From positions 1-64,000 of the forward strand of contig NZ_GL830988.1 in NCBI RefSeq assembly GCF_000188195.1: a stretch of 64,000 bases of DNA, read 5' to 3'. The notes beneath the pieces are model-generated. The model saw only the letters and a list, made by a program, of their open reading frames with translations, made no database searches and had not been told where the DNA came from. Source of the DNA: Succinatimonas hippei YIT 12066 (GTDB lineage: Bacteria; Pseudomonadota; Gammaproteobacteria; Enterobacterales; Succinivibrionaceae). Made by a program: the position numbers and the translations under genes. This document shows, in pieces, positions 78 to 10,292 of this stretch; position 1 is the stretch's first letter, and each line of letters starts with the position of its first letter.

Positions 78-784
78 ATGATGATCAATTTAACCGAATT
101 GCCTTTAAGTGTTACTTCCTTTAGTGAGTTTTGTGATAGGGGTAAAATTTATGTGGACAAAACGGATTTAGTTGCCGATTTGGCAAAATTCGATGCTCCG
201 ATTTTTTTATCCCGCCCGTGCAGATTCGGTAAATCTACTCTGCTCAGTACTTTCCATGAGCTGTTCTCAAACGGGCTTGATAAGTTCCAAGGTCTTAAAA
301 TCGTTACCGATAATTTATGGAATGATAGAACCTATAATGTAATTCATCTTGATTTATCTAAAATCAAAGTGATACCTAATTTGGAGGTAAAGCAGGCTTT
401 TGTAGAATCTTAAACGAGTTTTCCTATGAAAGCGTAGTAAGTTTTAAAGAATACGCATTTCGTGACGTATATAAGGGGATGCTGCAGATACTGGGGTATA
501 ACACTTATGCGGAGTATCATACGGCTTTAGGCATAAGCGACTTATGTTTTGGGGATGGGGATAGGATTTATATCTGTGAATTTAAGGTAATAGGCAAGTC
601 CGACAGCGGCAAAGAGAAGCTTGAGGAAGCGAAAGCGCAAATCCGGGAAAAGAGATACGGATTAAGACTTACAAACAAAGAAGTGATCACGCTTGCTGTT
701 ATTATTATCAATGAAAATAAAGATGATAAGCACGAAGCCATGCGTGAAGTGGCGGCAATTGAGGAAGTGGGAAAAACTTGTTGA
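78..784 (+). pseudogene. AAA-ATPase/PD-(D/E)XK nuclease family remnant (copy 1)
   Basis: This is a decayed member of the AAA-ATPase-like plus PD-(D/E)XK (DUF1703-type) family. Residues 1-100 keep the N-terminal segment with a Walker A-like RFGKST motif. The sequence then jumps in frame from LSKIK to IPNLEVK, about 280 residues further on by comparison with the copy at 50616. A second deletion follows AFVE and shifts the frame, so the first reading frame stops at 413. The C-terminal nuclease part continues in another frame (ILNEFSYE onward) to 784 and keeps the IYICEFK core and a QIREKRYG segment. Both catalytic regions can be recognised, but no complete protein can be made. The family is common in gut anaerobes and its function is unproven. 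Confidence 0.85.
647..696 (+). repeat. 50-bp direct repeat, identical to 52170-52219
   Basis: These 50 bases in the 3' nuclease part of the first AAA/PD-(D/E)XK remnant are identical to 52170-52219. A further identical stretch of about 29 bases lies near the end of both genes. The two copies are in the same orientation about 51.5 kb apart. Confidence 0.9.
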
Positions 785-897: not shown

Positions 898-3123
898 TTA
901 AAGTTCTTTGGCAAGACGCTTAAAAAAGGTTAGAGCACCGTCTAAATCAAGCGAACGATGAGCATAGTTAAGGCGTTTTAGCTCATCGCTTAAACAGTAG
1001 TCAAACTTGTCTGTTTCAAGGTTTTTAACTTTCATTACCAAATCGTTAAGTTTAATGTCGTTTTGCCTTAGGATGTTGGCTACTGCGACTTTTAAAGAGT
1101 CAATAGAGCAGTATTCAAGCTCGATATGGCTATTGTATTGGACATTTTTAATCTGCTCTTTTGCGAGCATGAGACTGACGGTACGCATGATGCGATCTCC
1201 TTTCCAAGGGAAAAGAGCAAGCCCTTGCGGACCTGAGATCATGCACTTTTTATCAAGACCTAAATTAAAGAAAGTATCACGTCCTGCAGCAAGGTTTTCT
1301 TTAGCCTGTGAATTAAGACAAGGCGGATAGTTGCCTTTCATATAAATATCAAACATAGTCATGCGGATTTCATCATGGATAAAGCCGGTATTTCCGGAAA
1401 CGGATAACGGAGATGCATGAAATTTATACGGTTTGACTGAAATGATGCGTTTTTGGGGGTTAACGTCGCTAACAATCCAACCGTTACCGGCAAAAAGAAA
1501 AGTATCTTGAACCGCTATCGGCTGACACAAAGGAATGGTTCCGATGTGTTTACCGTTATATTCAATAATGTAATCAGGTAAGGTTTCAAAAGAAGCGTAG
1601 AATTTCCATTGACTGCACAATCTTTCGCCTTCAAGCCCTAAAGTTAATGTACCGTCACGCAATTGTACGATGAGATCGTGCTCGGCAAGCGAACGCAGAA
1701 AGTTTGCGTATAAAGGTGCAGTACAAAGATTAAAAGGTCCTGTCTTGCAAAGCAGTTCCCAAAGATTTTTGGCTGAAACACTGCCGTTTGCCGCAATAAC
1801 TGAAAGGGTTTGTTGGACTAATGTGGAAAAAGAGTACTCTTTTTCAAGCGGAGGCTCATACCAGCGATTTAGCAAAAGCTTAATCATTGCTGCTGACAAA
1901 ACCGTGTCTTCCGAAAGTTGCTCGGTTAAATAATGTTTTGAGCTGTAATATTCAGGAATGAAAAGTCTTAAAACCGCAAGACCGTCACGGCGTCCGGAGC
2001 GCCCTAAGCGCTGACGCAATGAAGCAACGGATAACGGCGGAGATATCTGACCTATGGAGGCAACATTGCTTATATCAATACCGAGCTCAAGTGTTGCGGT
2101 GCATATGGCCGTAGTAGGCAGTCTCCCTTCCTGAAGTCTAGCTTCAAGACTTTCACGCATGTCTTTTGACAAGGATCCGTGATGAGGGAAGAATTCCTGC
2201 GGTACGTGATTCTTATCGCACAGCTCGTGAAGATCGTTTGCAATGACTTCGGTTGCGGCTCTTGAATTGGTGAAAACAAGATTAGTCGTACCGCGCAGCA
2301 ATCTGAAAATATCTCCGGCAATTTCCCGATAGCGGGTATCGGAGGTTTTTATTATCTCTTCGTCCTTTGTTAGGCGCTTTACTTCATTAATTCCTTTTTC
2401 TACATCATCATTGTCAATGATATAGCCGCGCACTTGTACGGCAAGGCGAGATTTACCGACGCTGTCGTCTTTGATTAAATCGCATTTTATAGTATGGTTG
2501 TTCGGACGCAGGTATTCTGTTACTGAGCTTAAATTTGAAAAGGTGGCGGAAATGGCGATACGCCTTATAACGCGAGCAACGCTGTTTTCAATGCGGTGCA
2601 GCTGCGATTGGAGCTGATAGCCGCGCTGAGTGCCCATGAAAGCGTGGAATTCATCAATGATGACAAAATCGGTATTTTTAAACGCTTCTTTTACAAAAGC
2701 GTTATGATTCATCAAAAGAGACTCAAGAGATTCGGGGGTAATGAGTAAAATTCCCTGAGGATTGTCAAACAGCTTTTTTTTATTGTTGGCGGCACTGTCC
2801 CCATGCCATGGCGTAACGGTAATTTTCAGACTTTCGGTCAGATCTTTTAATCTTCTTGTCTGATCGTTGATTAAAGCTTTAAGCGGGCTGATGCAGAGGA
2901 TCCTGATGCCTGGTTTATTTTCTTTTGCAATGTAAGTAAGTGCCGGCAAAAACGCAGCTTCGGTTTTACCGCTTGCTGTTGATGCGGAAATGATTATGTC
3001 ATCGCTGCTGTTTAAAATCGGGATGATGGCATTTTTCTGCACCGGATGCAGATCCTGCCATCCCCGCTGTCTGATCCATTTTAAAAGCCGCGGATCCAGT
3101 AAATCTATAGGGTTTTCCGTCAT
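898..3123 (-). CDS. Lhr-like DEAD/DEAH helicase (BrxHI-like)
   Basis: This is a superfamily 2 helicase of 741 aa. Visible motifs are I (SASTASGKT, residues 46-54), Ia (ISPLKAL), Ib (TPES), II as DEFH (157-160), III (SAT, 192-194), V (ATLELGIDIS) and VI (QRLGRSGRR, 371-379). The order and the DEFH box match Lhr-type helicases. The C-terminal half has no motif I can name. Its ATG overlaps the stop of the upstream ATPase as ATGA (3120-3123), so translation is probably coupled. From family knowledge, such helicases sit beside DUF2791 ATPases in type 2 BREX (brxD-brxHI) and in TerB-associated stress or defence clusters. No methylase, PglZ, PglW or TerB gene is visible nearby. A DNA-directed role is likely; defence is inference. 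Confidence 0.85.
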   Translation of the reverse strand: MTENPIDLLDPRLLKWIRQRGWQDLHPVQKNAIIPILNSSDDIIISASTASGKTEAAFLPALTYIAKENKPGIRILCISPLKALINDQTRRLKDLTESLKITVTPWHGDSAANNKKKLFDNPQGILLITPESLESLLMNHNAFVKEAFKNTDFVIIDEFHAFMGTQRGYQLQSQLHRIENSVARVIRRIAISATFSNLSSVTEYLRPNNHTIKCDLIKDDSVGKSRLAVQVRGYIIDNDDVEKGINEVKRLTKDEEIIKTSDTRYREIAGDIFRLLRGTTNLVFTNSRAATEVIANDLHELCDKNHVPQEFFPHHGSLSKDMRESLEARLQEGRLPTTAICTATLELGIDISNVASIGQISPPLSVASLRQRLGRSGRRDGLAVLRLFIPEYYSSKHYLTEQLSEDTVLSAAMIKLLLNRWYEPPLEKEYSFSTLVQQTLSVIAANGSVSAKNLWELLCKTGPFNLCTAPLYANFLRSLAEHDLIVQLRDGTLTLGLEGERLCSQWKFYASFETLPDYIIEYNGKHIGTIPLCQPIAVQDTFLFAGNGWIVSDVNPQKRIISVKPYKFHASPLSVSGNTGFIHDEIRMTMFDIYMKGNYPPCLNSQAKENLAAGRDTFFNLGLDKKCMISGPQGLALFPWKGDRIMRTVSLMLAKEQIKNVQYNSHIELEYCSIDSLKVAVANILRQNDIKLNDLVMKVKNLETDKFDYCLSDELKRLNYAHRSLDLDGALTFFKRLAKEL

Positions 3124-4448
3124 AGGGTAAAGGCGGTCAGAGCGTCCTCGTCATTGCTGTCATCCTTATCGGATGAAGCGTCATTTTTAACCGTTACCAA
3201 AGAAGGATCACTTTCATTGGCGACATTAATGCCCTCAATCAGCGTTTGCCATTTCAGATCGGGGTTTTGCGCCAAAATAGCCAGAAGATCGGTAAAAGCC
3301 TTAATAGTATTGCGCGGTGTTCTGAAGTACGCATCGCCGATACGGTTGCTGCAATGCTGTAAGAATGCGGTAAGCGCTTCGTCCGGCAGCAGATATTTTT
3401 CTTTATCGCCGCCGGCAAACACATTGCGGATATTGCATAAAAGGACGTAAAGTTCTTCCGGGTGCAGATTTTCCAGCATCAAAACCGGACTCGTGTAATC
3501 AACGACGTTGGCAATTTGGGCAAATGAGTTTTCAGCAAGGCGTGAATGTAAAGCCTCATAACTGTAAAGACCTTTGCGCGGATCGATTAGAAATTCTGGA
3601 GTTCCGCCTAAAAGAAAACCTAAATATTCAGCAGAGCCCTGCAGACAATCATTTAAGATACGCAGAATTTGCTCATAGTTTGCCGAGCGGGAACGCTGGT
3701 TGGAGATCTTGTATAAATTGACCATTTCGTCAAGATTGACAATAAGACCTTTGTATCCTGCCTGGACGACAAAACGGGCTAATAATTTTAAGTGATCGTA
3801 AACGGAAGAATCATCGATGATGGTTCTTACGTCCAAATCGTTTCTTGCTTCGGTGCGGGTGGAATATTCTCCGCGCAGATATCTTACGGCTGCGGCTTTT
3901 AATTCTTCGTTATCTTCATTGTAGCCGCGCCAATATGCCGCAATCACTTTGGCAAAATCATAGCCGCCGACAAGCTCAGAAAGTGAGGATAGCTTTTCTT
4001 TGATAAGTACTTCAACGTCCTTTCCCTGTTTTTCAGCTTCAGATCGCTGAACGGTAATAAATTTTTCGATGATGGGAATCATCGCGTTGCCTTCGGGGTG
4101 GGCTCGGGTGGCAATATTGCGGGTTAACTCTTGATAGAGGTTGCGGGCTTGTCCGTTGCTTGCCTGCAGGCGGCGATCCGGTGACAGATCCGCATTTACG
4201 GCAACCATGCCTTTTTCCAGCGCAATGTAACGGATTAGTTGTAAAAAGAAGGATTTACCGGCACCGAAATCTCCGATGATAAGTCTGAAAGCGCTTCCGC
4301 CTTCGCAGATCCTGTCTAGATCTTCAATTAAGGCTTTAACCTCGTTAACTCGTCCTACCTGAATGTGTTCCAGTCCGATACGCGGAGTTACGCCGGCGCG
4401 CAGCGATTGAATGATTGCTGATCTTTCACGAGGTCTTATTGCTGCCAT
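3120..4448 (-). CDS. DUF2791/BrxD-like ATP-binding protein
   Basis: This is a P-loop ATPase of 442 aa that I recognise as the DUF2791 (BREX ATP-binding, BrxD-like) family. It has Walker A GDFGAGKS (59-66) and a Walker B-like segment LIVNLDE (235-241). An AAKS-like C-terminal region containing RTPRN follows, and the tail is acidic (DASSDKDDSNDEDA). The ATG has an AAGGA ribosome site about 7 bases upstream. The gene lies 55 bp downstream of prmA in the same orientation and overlaps the helicase by 4 bp. The two products probably work together, perhaps with the ATPase loading or regulating the helicase on DNA. In other genomes the pair usually travels with a TerB-domain gene or the rest of type 2 BREX, which is missing here. 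Confidence 0.8.
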   Translation of the reverse strand: MAAIRPRERSAIIQSLRAGVTPRIGLEHIQVGRVNEVKALIEDLDRICEGGSAFRLIIGDFGAGKSFFLQLIRYIALEKGMVAVNADLSPDRRLQASNGQARNLYQELTRNIATRAHPEGNAMIPIIEKFITVQRSEAEKQGKDVEVLIKEKLSSLSELVGGYDFAKVIAAYWRGYNEDNEELKAAAVRYLRGEYSTRTEARNDLDVRTIIDDSSVYDHLKLLARFVVQAGYKGLIVNLDEMVNLYKISNQRSRSANYEQILRILNDCLQGSAEYLGFLLGGTPEFLIDPRKGLYSYEALHSRLAENSFAQIANVVDYTSPVLMLENLHPEELYVLLCNIRNVFAGGDKEKYLLPDEALTAFLQHCSNRIGDAYFRTPRNTIKAFTDLLAILAQNPDLKWQTLIEGINVANESDPSLVTVKNDASSDKDDSNDEDALTAFTL

Positions 4449-4503
4449 GCTTATTCCTTAAATCTACCAAAGAAAATTTTATTATAGCCCTATATATGCA
4501 AAT

Positions 4504-5385
4504 TTACTTCTTTTGCCCTGTAATTAACGCCCATCCGTCCTTTTCACGACTTAAAGCCATGTTGAAGTCCTTACTGTAAGCGTCAATGATTTCAGGGGCC
4601 TGCTCGGTCAAAATACCCGATAAAGCCAGCATACCGCCTTGGGCGGTAAGTTTGGCAATATGCGGTTCAAGCTCTGCAAGCGGGCCGCAGAGAATATTGG
4701 CTACGGTAACCGGCGCCGGAGTTAAGACAGAGCTGGATTTTTTACCGTCGCATAAGGTTAATTTATCTAAAACACCGTTGCGCTTGGCGTTTTCTTCACT
4801 TGCTTCAAGAGCCTGCGGATCGATATCGACGCCGTAAGCTTCTTTTGCGCCGAGTTTTAATGCTGCGATGGCAAGAATTCCGGAGCCGCAGCCGTAGTCA
4901 AGAACTGTTTTATCTAAGAGGTTAAGGCCGTCAAGCCATTCAAGACATAAAGATGTGGTCGGATGGGTTCCGGTTCCGAAAGCAAGACCGGGATCGAGCA
5001 TAACGGTAACGGCGTCAGAGTCGGGAACCTTACACCAAGTGGGGCAGATCCATAGCTTTTTACCGAATTTTAACGGCTTGAATGAATCCATCCAGGCTCT
5101 AATCCAATCTCTGTCTTCTAAATTGACCGACATGACAGGCACATGATCGCCTAAAATTTGCTTTAACGAATTGACGATGGCTTTATCGTCGGTTCCTTTA
5201 TCAAAAAGACCGGTTACATCCGTATTGGGCCATAAGCGGCGTTCGCCGGGGAGGGGCTCTAAAATCGGGCTGTCTTCTGCGTCGGAGTAGGTGACGGCAA
5301 GCGATCCTAATTGCTCCAGCAATGCTGCGATAGTATCGGCGTTTTTTGAAGTGGTACGTATTTTAATTTGAATCCAGTCAGACAT
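4504..5385 (-). CDS. prmA: Ribosomal protein L11 methyltransferase
   Basis: PrmA (293 aa) transfers methyl groups from SAM to lysines and the N-terminal amine of ribosomal protein L11. The N-terminal substrate-recognition domain precedes a Rossmann SAM-binding domain. The signature DPGLAFGTGTHPTT and motif I VLDYGCGSGILA are both present, and NILCGPL matches the usual NIL(A/C)xPL active-site loop. The length matches the family (about 293 aa). A TAGGTGA ribosome site precedes the ATG. The gene starts 7 bp after the PTS-like gene and is followed by the ATPase/helicase pair, so a housekeeping enzyme appears to sit in the middle of an unusual operon. Confidence 0.97.
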   Translation of the reverse strand: MSDWIQIKIRTTSKNADTIAALLEQLGSLAVTYSDAEDSPILEPLPGERRLWPNTDVTGLFDKGTDDKAIVNSLKQILGDHVPVMSVNLEDRDWIRAWMDSFKPLKFGKKLWICPTWCKVPDSDAVTVMLDPGLAFGTGTHPTTSLCLEWLDGLNLLDKTVLDYGCGSGILAIAALKLGAKEAYGVDIDPQALEASEENAKRNGVLDKLTLCDGKKSSSVLTPAPVTVANILCGPLAELEPHIAKLTAQGGMLALSGILTEQAPEIIDAYSKDFNMALSREKDGWALITGQKK

Positions 5386-5392
5386 ATATCAC

Positions 5393-6814
5393 CTATAAGG
5401 GTTTAACGTGCGGCATGGGTTTTATTGCAAATGCCGGGGTTAAAGGGACTTCCTGCTCGGTCATGAAGAATTCATTGGCGTTTAGAAGCTGCAGGCGTTT
5501 TTGAAAGAAAGCCGCATTATCCCCGAAATCACAGGATAAAACCCGTTTAATGCGGTCATAAGAAATTTTCTTGTTGGTCAAAGTGTTTAAAGTCGGCATA
5601 TTGATGAACGCGATATCGTTAATATGCAGGAAAACGGTACTTCCTTGCCGTTTTACGTCACGCAAATTACTAAGTCCGCCTATGGAACGCAAAATCGCAA
5701 TAACACTTAAATCGGGGCTATTTTTATTATTGGCGCCGGTTCCCGCTTTTATTAAGGATTTTCTTTGCTTTATTACCTGAGTGCGCTCTTTTTTGAACAT
5801 AATGCTGATAAGGACGTAAAAAACGGGGAAGATGAAAGCAAATAGGAAAAGATAAAGATGTGTTTTTCTAAAACCGATAAGGTGACTCGTCATCATATTG
5901 ATGTCGGGAGTATAGAGATTGGAGATCTCGGTTAAAGCCGGCAGGATCATGAAGTAAGACAAAAAACACAGGATTACGCTGTTTAATAAAAACACGATGA
6001 AGGTCCCGGGCAGAAAAATCATTATCAGTAATGAAATAAGCGAGACGCAGCCGCCTATTGATGCAGTCATGGCACAGATAGCTGAGAGAAAGGTTAAAAA
6101 CACTCTTAAGCCGGGCCCGTTAAAAAAAGATCGCACTAAAATAATCGTCGGCAATGAAATGACGTTGCTGACGAAAATAGCATTGATAAATGCGTTGCGC
6201 ATTAAAGGATCGTAATTGGTTGAAGCAAGATAGCTTAAAAATTCATGATGACCGAAAGTCTGCATTACAAGAAAAATCGGTGCATAAATAAAAGATAAGA
6301 AGCTTGTTCCGAAGGACGGGCTGAAGCTGAATTCGACAAAGCTTTGTATTTGCCGCAATATGACGATCGATCCTATAAGAACGAGGTAGGGCAGGATAAA
6401 AGCCGAAATACGGTTGCCTTCATGAGAGTCATTTACGGATTGATCTTCGTCAAACAATACGGAAGACGGCAGCATCGCAAGAATTGAGGCGGAAGCGGCA
6501 AATGAGCAGATAACGGGGTTATGCAGCAGATCGGGATTGATATTGGCGACGAGAACAATGAGGATGATATAAGAACTTAAAGTGATGACAAATTGAATGA
6601 AACGGTTTTTAAGCGGAATAAGTAAAACCAGCATCACGGCAAAAATTCCGGGAAAAACGACGCGGATGATATTAAGGCACAAATGACGAAGACCCGGAGT
6701 CATTTCAGTGGTAATGCGCGGGTTAAGCGTCCATATAAGCAGAGCAAAAAGCATGAGAGGAAGCAGGAGAAACAAGCTTCTTTGCTGATAGGCCTGATTT
6801 TGCAGTCGCTTCAA
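5393..6814 (-). CDS. PTS EIICB-like membrane protein lacking phosphocysteine
   Basis: This protein of 473 aa has about 9-10 hydrophobic segments over residues 10-350, then a cytoplasmic tail. The membrane part resembles EIIC of the glucose superfamily: FGHHEFL stands where FGLHHxF is usual, and a SAI..TAS segment stands at the GITEP position. Residues about 372-445 (ILRSIGGLSNLRDV onward) align without gaps to the EIIB start, including the GG.xN and final D positions. The phosphorylated Cys of the CATRL motif is Gln here (about residue 390), and the following Arg is Thr. GITEP is also lost. It therefore cannot phosphorylate a sugar by the PTS route and may be a sensor or an unrelated permease. 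Translation likely starts at TTG with GGGGA upstream. It heads the prmA-ATPase-helicase group. Confidence 0.6.
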   Translation of the reverse strand: MKRLQNQAYQQRSLFLLLPLMLFALLIWTLNPRITTEMTPGLRHLCLNIIRVVFPGIFAVMLVLLIPLKNRFIQFVITLSSYIILIVLVANINPDLLHNPVICSFAASASILAMLPSSVLFDEDQSVNDSHEGNRISAFILPYLVLIGSIVILRQIQSFVEFSFSPSFGTSFLSFIYAPIFLVMQTFGHHEFLSYLASTNYDPLMRNAFINAIFVSNVISLPTIILVRSFFNGPGLRVFLTFLSAICAMTASIGGCVSLISLLIMIFLPGTFIVFLLNSVILCFLSYFMILPALTEISNLYTPDINMMTSHLIGFRKTHLYLFLFAFIFPVFYVLISIMFKKERTQVIKQRKSLIKAGTGANNKNSPDLSVIAILRSIGGLSNLRDVKRQGSTVFLHINDIAFINMPTLNTLTNKKISYDRIKRVLSCDFGDNAAFFQKRLQLLNANEFFMTEQEVPLTPAFAIKPMPHVKPL

Positions 6815-7011
6815 TTTATATCCCCGTTAACCGATCTTAGTTATTTTAACAAAAACATAGCGATTTCAATGAAAAAACGATCATTCTTTCATGAGATAGG
6901 AAAAATCTTGTTTTGGGTATGATAAATTTCCTTAAGTTTTAAGTCCGGCTTATAACCCTAAGAGGCTTTTTTCTTGTGTTACAATTTGTGCCGTTTTTAG
7001 AGGAGAGAAAA

Positions 7012-8709
7012 GTGAAGATTGTAAGACGGGAAAAAGTAGATGACAGTGCGCTTAAAGATTGTATTTCCGATCCGATATTGCGGCAGGTTCTGGTAAGCCG
7101 CGGAGTTACATCGGATAAAGAGCTTTCTCCCGATCTTGCATTACTTTTACATTATCGTGATTTAAAAGATATCAAGGAAGCGTCTGAACGAATTGCTGCA
7201 GCCGTAATTAATAAAGAAATCGTCATGGTTTGCGGCGATTATGATGTAGACGGGATTACGGGTACGGCTCTTGGGGTTTTGTGTCTGAAAACTTTCGGCT
7301 TGGATAAAGTGTTGTTTGATGTGCCGTCTCGGTATGACGGCGGATACGGATTGTCATTTAAAATGATTGATAAAGCCGTAGAAAATGGAGTGACACTGAT
7401 AATTACCGTAGATAACGGTATTAGCTGCTGTGAAGCGGCATTATATGCCAAAGAAAAAGGAATTGATTTAGTCATAACCGACCATCATGAAAGTTTAGGT
7501 ACTCTGCCCGAAGCTGCTGCGGTCGTCGATCCTAAGCGGTGTGACTGCAATTTCGCTTCTAAGAATCTGTGCGGAGTCGGGGTTCTTTTTTATGTTTTAA
7601 TCGCGGTTAGGGCGGTTCTTATTGAAAAAGGATATTACTTATCACGCTCGGCAGCTCCCTGCATGGGGCAGTTTTTGGATTTAGTTGCAATCGGAACTAT
7701 AGGTGATGTAGTAAATCTTGATGCCAATAATCGTCGTTTGGTTAAAGCGGGATTGCAGCGCATGCACAGGCAAAATGCGCAAATCGGGGTGAAAGCTCTT
7801 GCCGAAGTGTCAAGAATCGATATGGCAAAAATCGATCCTGTCTCTATCGCTTTTGACTTATGTCCGCGTCTTAATGCGGCAGGAAGATTGAAGCTTGATG
7901 ATAATCCGGCGCTGTTGTGTCTTTTAAGTGATGATTATGACAAAGCACTTTCCCTTGCGGTAAAACTTGATTTTTGCAACCGCCGCCGCAGTGATTTTGA
8001 AAAGGTAATGCTTGCCGAAGCCAAAGAGGACGCTTTGCTGCAGGCAAACGATAATGTTTTGGTTTTATACCGATCTTCATGGTTAAGCGGAATTTCAGGA
8101 CTTATCGCCGGGCGGCTTAAAGAACAATATCAAAAGCCTTGTTTTGTTTTTGCCGGAGATACGGAGAATGTTACTGGATCGGCACGCTCGGTTCCCGGTT
8201 TTTCCATAGTCGGGGCTTTAAATCACATCAATGATGCCGCACCGGATTTGCTGCTGCGTTACGGCGGACACTCAATGGCGGCAGGAGCTACTTTGAAGGT
8301 TACGCAGCTCAAGCGCTTTAAAGAGCTTTTAAATAAAGAAGCATTGATCCTTAATGATAAAGGTGAAGAGGAAGTTCTGTCAGACGGCATTTTACCCGAA
8401 TCTTATTTTAAGGATCTGGATTTTGCCTTGGCACTTGAGGCATGCGGGCCTTGGGGGCAAGGTTTCCCCGAGCCGGTATTTGACGGCGTGTTTTATATTG
8501 AAGAGACTCGAGTCCTTGCCAATCGGCATGTCAGATTCAGGTTGCGTACGGATAATACGGTTTTTAGCGCGATAAGGTTTCGGGCTTCGGTTTATGAAAA
8601 AAATCTTTTGCCGGGAATTGAGGTTAAAGCTGCTTTTTCGGTAGGCGTCGATCGTTATTACGCCAATGAGCGGGTGGAAATTAAGATTGAGTATATTGAA
8701 CCTGTATAG
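7012..8709 (+). CDS. recJ: Single-stranded-DNA exonuclease RecJ
   Basis: RecJ degrades single-stranded DNA 5' to 3' in the RecF pathway, mismatch repair and base excision repair. The DHH-family motifs are present in order: CGDYDVDGITG, DNGIS, TDHHE and, near residue 412, the DHHA1 signature GGHSMAAG. The likely start is GTG at 7012, with AGGAGA just upstream. An in-frame extension back to 6976 has no ribosome site. The 565 aa product matches the family length. The gene is divergent from the PTS-like gene, with a 197-bp spacer. Confidence 0.96.
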   Translation: MKIVRREKVDDSALKDCISDPILRQVLVSRGVTSDKELSPDLALLLHYRDLKDIKEASERIAAAVINKEIVMVCGDYDVDGITGTALGVLCLKTFGLDKVLFDVPSRYDGGYGLSFKMIDKAVENGVTLIITVDNGISCCEAALYAKEKGIDLVITDHHESLGTLPEAAAVVDPKRCDCNFASKNLCGVGVLFYVLIAVRAVLIEKGYYLSRSAAPCMGQFLDLVAIGTIGDVVNLDANNRRLVKAGLQRMHRQNAQIGVKALAEVSRIDMAKIDPVSIAFDLCPRLNAAGRLKLDDNPALLCLLSDDYDKALSLAVKLDFCNRRRSDFEKVMLAEAKEDALLQANDNVLVLYRSSWLSGISGLIAGRLKEQYQKPCFVFAGDTENVTGSARSVPGFSIVGALNHINDAAPDLLLRYGGHSMAAGATLKVTQLKRFKELLNKEALILNDKGEEEVLSDGILPESYFKDLDFALALEACGPWGQGFPEPVFDGVFYIEETRVLANRHVRFRLRTDNTVFSAIRFRASVYEKNLLPGIEVKAAFSVGVDRYYANERVEIKIEYIEPV

Positions 8710-9451: not shown

Positions 9452-9483
9452 AAGCGCTGATTTTATTTTCAGCGCTTTTTGTT
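9452..9483 (+). terminator. Intrinsic terminator after the RpiB-family gene
   Basis: A perfect 9-bp stem (AAGCGCTGA/TCAGCGCTT) with an 8-base AT-rich loop is followed by a T-rich tract. It lies between convergent genes and could also serve the minus-strand DUF2786 gene. Confidence 0.85.
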
Positions 9484-10292
9484 TAATCATCAAAACGAAG
9501 CCGAGCCGTAGTTTTTCCTTTCACTCCCTGAAATATGTTGAATGTTTGTGCATCTTTATTACCGCGGGTATATGACTGTATCATTTCTTGAGTAAATTTT
9601 TTGCTGCGTTGTCTCATATCGGTAAGATTCGGGTAGTTTTGGGCCTTATATTCCGTTATCAGTTTTTGTTCACTAAAGCTTAAAGCGTAGTCCTGAACTT
9701 TTTCTTTTAAAACTTTTAAATAACCGTAAACGTAAGCTTCGGTATTTTTACAAACTTCTTTATTTTCTTGCTGCTTGACCGTTTTCTTGATGTACGCAAA
9801 AACGGCGGCAGGAGGCATTTTAAAAGATTGTGAGTACTCTAATATTCGTTGTTCTGAAAATAAGGCTATTTTTTGCCGTGTAAGTGCGGAAAGTCTGATG
9901 CGCTCTTGTTTGGCAAATTCTTTTTTAATTACGCAAATTTGGCGGGAAAGCAAGGTGAAAGCATATCCTGCCGCTTCAACACGATCTTTTGCACCGATAA
10001 AAATTATGCTGTTTATTTTGCCGTTTACGGTGTGAAAAAAATAGTCAAGGCCGAAAGCGCTGCTTATGATGCTGCCTAATAGTCCTATCAAATGTTTGGC
10101 GCGCAGCGCGGAAGGGGCATCTAGCTCAAGTTCCGTAATTGAATTTAAATTGATATCATCAAGAGTTATGCTGTGCTCTTTCATGAGTTTTTGCGCTCGC
10201 GAAAGAGCGATAGCTGCCTCTGAGGAATTGGAACTGTGCGATAGGGCTAAAAGCTTTTTAATTTTTTCAAATATCTGCTGCCTGTTTAGCAT
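9483..10292 (-). CDS. DUF2786 domain protein
   Basis: This soluble protein of 269 aa begins with a DUF2786 domain (residues about 5-45: IFEKIKKLLALS, then a heptad-like EAAIALSRAQKLMKEHSI). A middle region with GLDYFFH and IIFIGAKDRVEAAGYAF resembles the second domain usual in this family, and a Lys/Gln-rich charged C-terminus follows. The function is unknown. Such proteins are scattered through bacteria and phages and are sometimes found in mobile regions. The 60-bp gap after ppgK contains a terminator, so this gene is probably transcribed separately. Confidence 0.75.
   Translation of the reverse strand: MLNRQQIFEKIKKLLALSHSSNSSEAAIALSRAQKLMKEHSITLDDINLNSITELELDAPSALRAKHLIGLLGSIISSAFGLDYFFHTVNGKINSIIFIGAKDRVEAAGYAFTLLSRQICVIKKEFAKQERIRLSALTRQKIALFSEQRILEYSQSFKMPPAAVFAYIKKTVKQQENKEVCKNTEAYVYGYLKVLKEKVQDYALSFSEQKLITEYKAQNYPNLTDMRQRSKKFTQEMIQSYTRGNKDAQTFNIFQGVKGKTTARLRFDD

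What the first reader, a model, noticed from the sequence alone, without database searches (positions are those of the whole stretch)
898..6814. BrxD/BrxHI-like ATPase-helicase pair in an operon with prmA and a dead PTS permease
Four minus-strand genes are tightly spaced (7 bp, 55 bp, 4-bp overlap): an EIICB-like protein, prmA, a DUF2791 ATPase and an Lhr-like helicase. The last two normally belong to type 2 BREX or TerB-linked clusters, yet no methylase, PglZ, PglW or TerB gene is near. This could be a minimal two-gene system, or a DNA-repair module tied to translation or nutrient sensing.
Basis: partly seen in the sequence, partly recalled or inferred. Interest (0 to 1): 0.7.

Follow-up and report, generated by a model that had tools for sequence, protein, structure and literature searches.

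The report
Split, family-wide Shango phage-defence genes
The two genes are the ATPase and helicase of a known phage-defence system called Shango, which elsewhere travels as a compact three-gene cassette but in this family of gut bacteria was apparently gained once, became a fixed part of the chromosome, and now seems to keep its third gene at a different place in the genome.

Summary
The four genes and their spacing are exactly as described. The ATPase-helicase pair is not BREX: it matches the Shango proteins SngB (596 bits, versus 149 for BrxD) and SngC (753 versus 382 for BrxHI). In the non-Succinivibrionaceae loci inspected, sngB-sngC directly follow sngA (TerB protein), also on a plasmid. 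In Succinivibrionaceae no sngA lies beside them. Instead nearly every sngBC-bearing genome encodes, mostly beside xseA, a 1,000-2,200-aa protein whose only confident homology is the C-terminal TerB_C part of SngA (profile match E 7e-22). SngB is in 49 of 50 genomes of twelve genera and this SngA-like protein in 46 of 50; both are absent from the seven genomes of the two basal genera. Elsewhere in the order SngB is rare (2 of 273). Gene order (EIICB-like, prmA, fis, sngB, sngC in early-branching genera) and trees support one insertion downstream of fis, vertical inheritance, and later loss of fis in the window's clade. Linkage to prmA and the cysteine-less PtsG-like gene thus looks historical, not functional. 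Best reading: a split Shango defence system fixed as core genes. Function here is untested; domestication to another role cannot be excluded.

The parts
898..3123 (-). sngC: Lhr-type SF2 DEAD/DEAH helicase of Shango
   Evidence: PADLOC SngC 753 bits (BrxHI 382); motifs GKT, DEFH, SAT and QRLGRSGRR present and aligned in 17 homologues; nearest solved relatives include Lhr-type helicases
3120..4448 (-). sngB: BrxC/D-type AAA+ ATPase of Shango
   Evidence: PADLOC SngB 596 bits (BrxD 149); NCBIfam BREX_BrxD 147 bits, under its cut-off of 350; Walker A G59..GK65, Walker B D240-E241, C-terminal F440xL442 invariant in 26 homologues
4449..4503 (-). 55-bp prmA-sngB gap: no terminator-like hairpin, a TATAAT hexamer (4486-4481) without a good -35, AAGGA ahead of the sngB ATG; ancestral site of fis
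   Evidence: sequence, scan; fis occupies this place in early-branching genera
4504..5385 (-). prmA, ribosomal protein L11 methyltransferase; neighbour, not part of the system
   Evidence: TIGR00406 301 bits, cut-off 183
5393..6814 (-). PtsG-like EIICB with no phospho-cysteine; neighbour tied to prmA, not to sngBC
   Evidence: fold match, alignment A1, present with prmA in g12 that lacks sngBC
6976..8709 (+). recJ, divergent upstream neighbour that marks the conserved chromosomal locus
   Evidence: Pfam DHH/DHHA1/RecJ_OB; same neighbour across genera

Best explanation
The pair is SngB (AAA+ ATPase) and SngC (Lhr-type helicase) of the anti-phage system Shango, in a split, chromosomally fixed form found in Succinivibrionaceae. 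The third component, SngA, is most likely the unlinked 1,072-aa TerB_C protein at C61:6597-9815 of the same genome. Likely mechanism: SngB, an ORC/Cdc6-like AAA+ ATPase, loads or activates the SngC helicase on phage or damaged DNA, and SngA supplies sensing or output through its TerB_C domain. Supported here: identity of SngB/SngC, intact motifs, purifying selection, SngA TerB_C homology, family-wide co-occurrence, common locus and mostly vertical descent. Inferred: complex formation, helicase loading, SngA's role, and that defence is still the function.
For: SngB/SngC are the best PADLOC models by wide margins. Loci of relatives outside the family carry sngA-sngB-sngC contiguously, as on a Klebsiella plasmid. 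TerB_C found in all 27 SngA-like proteins scanned; 26 of 27 hit PADLOC SngA and essentially no other defence model; profile-profile 99.4%, E 7e-22 to classical SngA. SngB 49/57 and SngA-like 46/57 genomes, both 0/7 in the basal genera g12/g13; order-wide 2 of 273. prmA+recJ tree rooted on E. coli puts g12+g13 sister to all Shango-bearing genera, and the SngB tree shows the same two main clades. dN/dS 0.03-0.11 for sngB and sngC in the close pairs. Shango's anti-phage activity was shown in P. aeruginosa (PMC10250203); the ORC/Cdc6 class and helicase-loading idea for the related BrxD come from PMC12839542.
Against: Only about 170 C-terminal residues of the SngA-like protein are confidently homologous to SngA; TerB_N is not detectable. 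The co-occurrence reflects one evolutionary gain, so it is a single phylogenetic event. SngA-SngB distance correlation (rho 0.71) is no stronger than SngA-recJ (0.75). The window genome's own SngA-like protein scores below PADLOC and Pfam cut-offs. Four sngBC genomes lack a detectable SngA-like protein (G029, G038, G039, G041; all below 90% complete). The SngB model has modest confidence (pLDDT 71) and only weak ORC matches. No functional data.
Confidence: 0.68

Rival explanations
1. Domesticated system: SngA/B/C of Succinivibrionaceae no longer serve mainly phage defence but a chromosomal maintenance task (repair, fork rescue or nucleoid function).
For: Near-universal retention in 12 genera (49/50 genomes) at a fixed locus, unlike the rare or plasmid-borne distribution elsewhere; SngB more conserved between genera (median 68%) than PrmA (54%), RecJ (38%) or XseA (32%); SngC resembles Lhr repair helicases.
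Against: SngB is also very conserved in mobile Shango (97.5% between Chlorobaculum and Vibrio), so slow evolution may be a property of the protein; SngA evolves fast (17% median identity), as expected under conflict; basal genera live without it.
Confidence: 0.22
2. Two-gene system: SngB-SngC act alone and the TerB_C protein is unrelated.
For: No sngA at the locus in any of the family loci inspected; SngA homology limited to one domain.
Against: The TerB_C protein has the same presence/absence pattern at genus level, and hits SngA and not other defence models.
Confidence: 0.15
3. BREX remnant: leftover BrxD/BrxHI of a type 2 BREX cluster.
For: Both proteins match BrxD and BrxHI models at lower scores.
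Against: Scores far lower than for Shango; BREX_BrxD under its cut-off; no PglZ in the genome; nearest sequences outside the family all in Shango loci.
Confidence: 0.01
4. Functional module with PrmA and the dead EIICB (translation or nutrient sensing).
For: Tight same-strand spacing in the window, no terminator-like site in the gaps.
Against: EIICB-prmA-fis exist without sngBC in g12; fis, a methyltransferase-like gene or transporter genes separate prmA and sngB in many genera; a few sngBC copies are elsewhere.
Confidence: 0.03

Closest known systems
Shango (SngABC; Millman 2022 as cited in, and Johnson 2023, PMC10250203)
   Same: SngB and SngC full-length relatives with intact motifs and 4-bp overlap; a SngA-type TerB_C domain protein in the same genomes
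   Different: sngA not adjacent but unlinked, 1,000-2,200 aa, TerB_N not recognisable; fixed in a whole clade instead of mobile
Type 2 BREX (BrxD, BrxHI)
   Same: Related ATPase-helicase dyad
   Different: Much lower scores than Shango, no PglZ in the genome, other BREX genes not seen nearby
Lhr / ligase-associated DEXH repair helicases
   Same: SF2 helicase core of SngC
   Different: Far below equivalog cut-offs (217 vs 850 bits); paired with an AAA+ ATPase

Membership tests
Shango | SngB ATPase | tested here: met
   PDLC03959 596 bits over residues 3-438 of 442
Shango | SngC helicase directly downstream of sngB | tested here: met
   PDLC03960 753 bits, 4-bp overlap
Shango | SngA (TerB protein) present | tested here: inconclusive
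   Unlinked TerB_C protein: family profile matches SngA at 99.4% probability, but only in TerB_C; the window genome's own copy is below cut-offs
Shango | Three genes contiguous | tested here: not met
   No sngA next to sngBC in the window or in family loci; hence filed as a variant, not a standard Shango locus
Shango | Anti-phage activity | not testable with these tools
   No experiment possible
Type 2 BREX | BrxD above curated cut-off | tested here: not met
   147.5 bits versus 350
Type 2 BREX | PglZ in the genome | tested here: not met
   No PF08665 match
Type 2 BREX | PglX methylase and PglW kinase near | not tested
   Not searched across the genome; none among the neighbouring genes scanned
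PTS EIICB (PtsG type), neighbour gene | EIIC-EIIB fold | tested here: met
   Foldseek E 3e-8 to PtsG; EIIB TM 0.81-0.87
PTS EIICB (PtsG type), neighbour gene | EIIB phospho-cysteine | tested here: not met
   No cysteine at that position in 22 homologues

The most novel reading that the evidence does not exclude
A mobile phage-defence complex was captured once by an ancestor of most Succinivibrionaceae, split into two loci and domesticated as a core genome-maintenance complex with a rebuilt, rapidly evolving SngA subunit, possibly linked to the later loss of the nucleoid protein Fis from the same locus.
Probability: 0.2. Interest if true: 0.75.

Novelty: new variant of a known kind. Interest (0 to 1): 0.55.

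Why it matters
Defence systems are usually thought of as accessory genes that come and go. Here one appears fixed at a single chromosomal place in about 50 species of gut and rumen bacteria, with its sensor-like subunit detached and remodelled. Searches that demand three adjacent genes would probably miss it (inference; the tools' rules were not run). It offers a natural experiment: does a core Shango still fight phages, and what does the TerB_C protein do when it is no longer encoded beside its partners? No paper in the held library mentions Shango together with Succinivibrionaceae.

Tried and rejected
BREX remnant rejected on scores and missing PglZ. Link to PrmA/EIICB rejected on comparative synteny. 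TerB_N in the SngA-like N-terminus: not detectable. Specific SngA-SngB coevolution: no excess over the species signal. SngB fold search: only weak ORC/Cdc6-like matches, so the fold class rests on PMC12839542. The SngB tree cannot show by itself that the two family clades are one clade: it is unrooted, and the only far row (second copy of G056) is a very long branch. Two family scans failed on bad coordinates and were repeated.

Full report
WHAT IS THERE. The four minus-strand genes and their spacing (7 bp, 55 bp, 4-bp overlap) are confirmed. Family scans name the ATPase and helicase as Shango SngB and SngC: 596 and 753 bits, against 149 and 382 for BrxD and BrxHI, and the curated BREX BrxD model is missed by a wide margin (147 of 350 bits). 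Both proteins keep their catalytic motifs (Walker A and B in SngB; GKT, DEFH, SAT and the QRLGRSGRR motif in SngC). SngB also ends in an acidic tail with an invariant F-x-L, which could be a docking peptide (inference). The window starts at the first base of its contig, so the region downstream of sngC is cut short.

NEIGHBOURS. prmA is ordinary. The 473-aa gene has no Pfam hit, but its predicted structure matches E. coli PtsG and the EIIB domain; the phospho-cysteine is missing in all 22 homologues. It accompanies prmA also in genus g12, which has no sngBC, so it belongs to prmA's neighbourhood and not to Shango.

RELATIVES. The 80 closest loci fall into two kinds. Outside the Succinivibrionaceae the order is sngA-sngB-sngC, in several phyla. 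681 plasmid records hold a SngB relative, 540 of them predicted conjugative; the one plasmid opened shows a TerB_N protein, the ATPase and the helicase between insertion sequences. Near-identical SngB in Chlorobaculum and Vibrio (97.5%) shows recent transfer. Inside the Succinivibrionaceae sngB-sngC sit at a conserved recJ / EIICB / prmA locus and sngA is missing there. Of the 38 family loci inspected, about 35 are at that locus (my count); two in genus g11 are elsewhere and one contig is too short.

THE MISSING PART. The SngA model finds one place in the window's genome, a 1,072-aa protein beside xseA. Related proteins of 1,000-2,200 aa occur across the family, mostly next to xseA. All 27 scanned carry TerB_C (the window genome's own copy only below the cut-off), 26 hit PADLOC SngA, and profile comparison with classical SngA gives 99.4% probability, E 7e-22. 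The homology is confined to the C-terminal TerB_C part; the N-terminal 300 residues are conserved within the family but do not match TerB_N. I therefore call it SngA-like: probable, not proven.

DISTRIBUTION. Of 57 family genomes, 49 have SngB and 46 have the SngA-like protein by either search. The seven genomes of genera g12 and g13 have neither; of the other 50, one lacks SngB (G009, 86% complete) and four lack the SngA-like protein, all below 90% complete. Elsewhere in the order only 2 of 273 sampled genomes have a strong SngB hit. The system is thus core in this clade and rare around it.

HISTORY. A prmA+recJ tree rooted with E. coli places g12+g13 as sister to all Shango-bearing genera (SH-aLRT 95 for g12+g13 and 90 for the others; quick method). 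The SngB tree shows the same two main groups within the family (g7, g9, g10, g14 versus the rest), and SngB distances follow those of recJ (rho 0.79) and prmA (0.76). In g12 the order is EIICB-prmA-fis; in g9, g10 and g14 it is EIICB-prmA-fis-sngB-sngC, and in g7 fis also lies between prmA and sngB. In the window's clade fis is gone from all 41 genomes, leaving prmA directly upstream of sngB in many of them. The simplest account is one insertion of sngBC downstream of fis, vertical inheritance and later loss of fis. E. coli has prmA-dusB-fis, so prmA-fis proximity is old. The apparent prmA operon is a by-product: in other genera a methyltransferase-like protein or transporter genes lie between prmA and sngB.

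SELECTION. In close pairs sngB and sngC have dN/dS of 0.03-0.11, like prmA; the SngA-like gene is looser (0.10-0.24). Between genera the median identity is 68% for SngB, 49% for SngC and 17% for the SngA-like protein. Two enzymes held constant and a fast-evolving partner fits a conserved motor with an adapting sensor or adaptor, but does not prove it.

HOW IT PROBABLY WORKS. Shango reduces phage plating in P. aeruginosa (PMC10250203). The related BrxD is classed as an ORC/Cdc6-type ATPase thought to load or activate its helicase partner (PMC12839542), and SngC groups with other defence helicases (PMC12278908). By analogy SngB would load SngC on invading or damaged DNA, with SngA coupling recognition to output. 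Only the component identities, intact motifs and constraint are shown here; the rest is inference.

VERDICT. A new variant of a known system: Shango with sngA apparently detached, fixed as core chromosomal genes in most Succinivibrionaceae. Main uncertainties: whether the TerB_C protein is truly SngA in function, and whether defence is still the job.

Noticed in passing
window 4449-4503 and family genomes: The nucleoid protein Fis is absent from all 41 genomes of the window's clade (g1-g6, g8, g11) but present in all 16 genomes of g7, g9, g10, g12, g13 and g14; a gammaproteobacterial clade without fis.
   Followed up: yes
window 78-413 and 479-784 (+): Two fragments matching the AAA-ATPase_like N-terminus and the PDDEXK_9 C-terminus, apparently one broken gene at the contig's end.
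   Followed up: no
L014:2838-5129, L009:2955-6251, L011:3286-5643: Genus g2 has an extra 763-1,152-aa protein with a weakly matched C-terminal SAM-methyltransferase-like domain between prmA and sngB.
   Followed up: partly
L173, L174 and other g2 loci: The SngA-like protein of genus g2 is up to 2,197 aa, about twice the size in other genera.
   Followed up: no
L155:7584-8909 (G056 C43): A second, very divergent SngB in genome G056, with a weak SngA match just upstream.
   Followed up: no
L154 (G056 C37): sngC is split into 127-aa and 614-aa frames, a frameshift or an assembly error.
   Followed up: no
plasmid collection: 681 plasmid records, mostly Klebsiella and Salmonella, 540 predicted conjugative, carry a SngB relative; none in 50,697 phage records.
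   Followed up: partly
window 9483-10292 (-): DUF2786/DUF7168 protein of unknown function near recJ and an RpiB-like gene.
   Followed up: no
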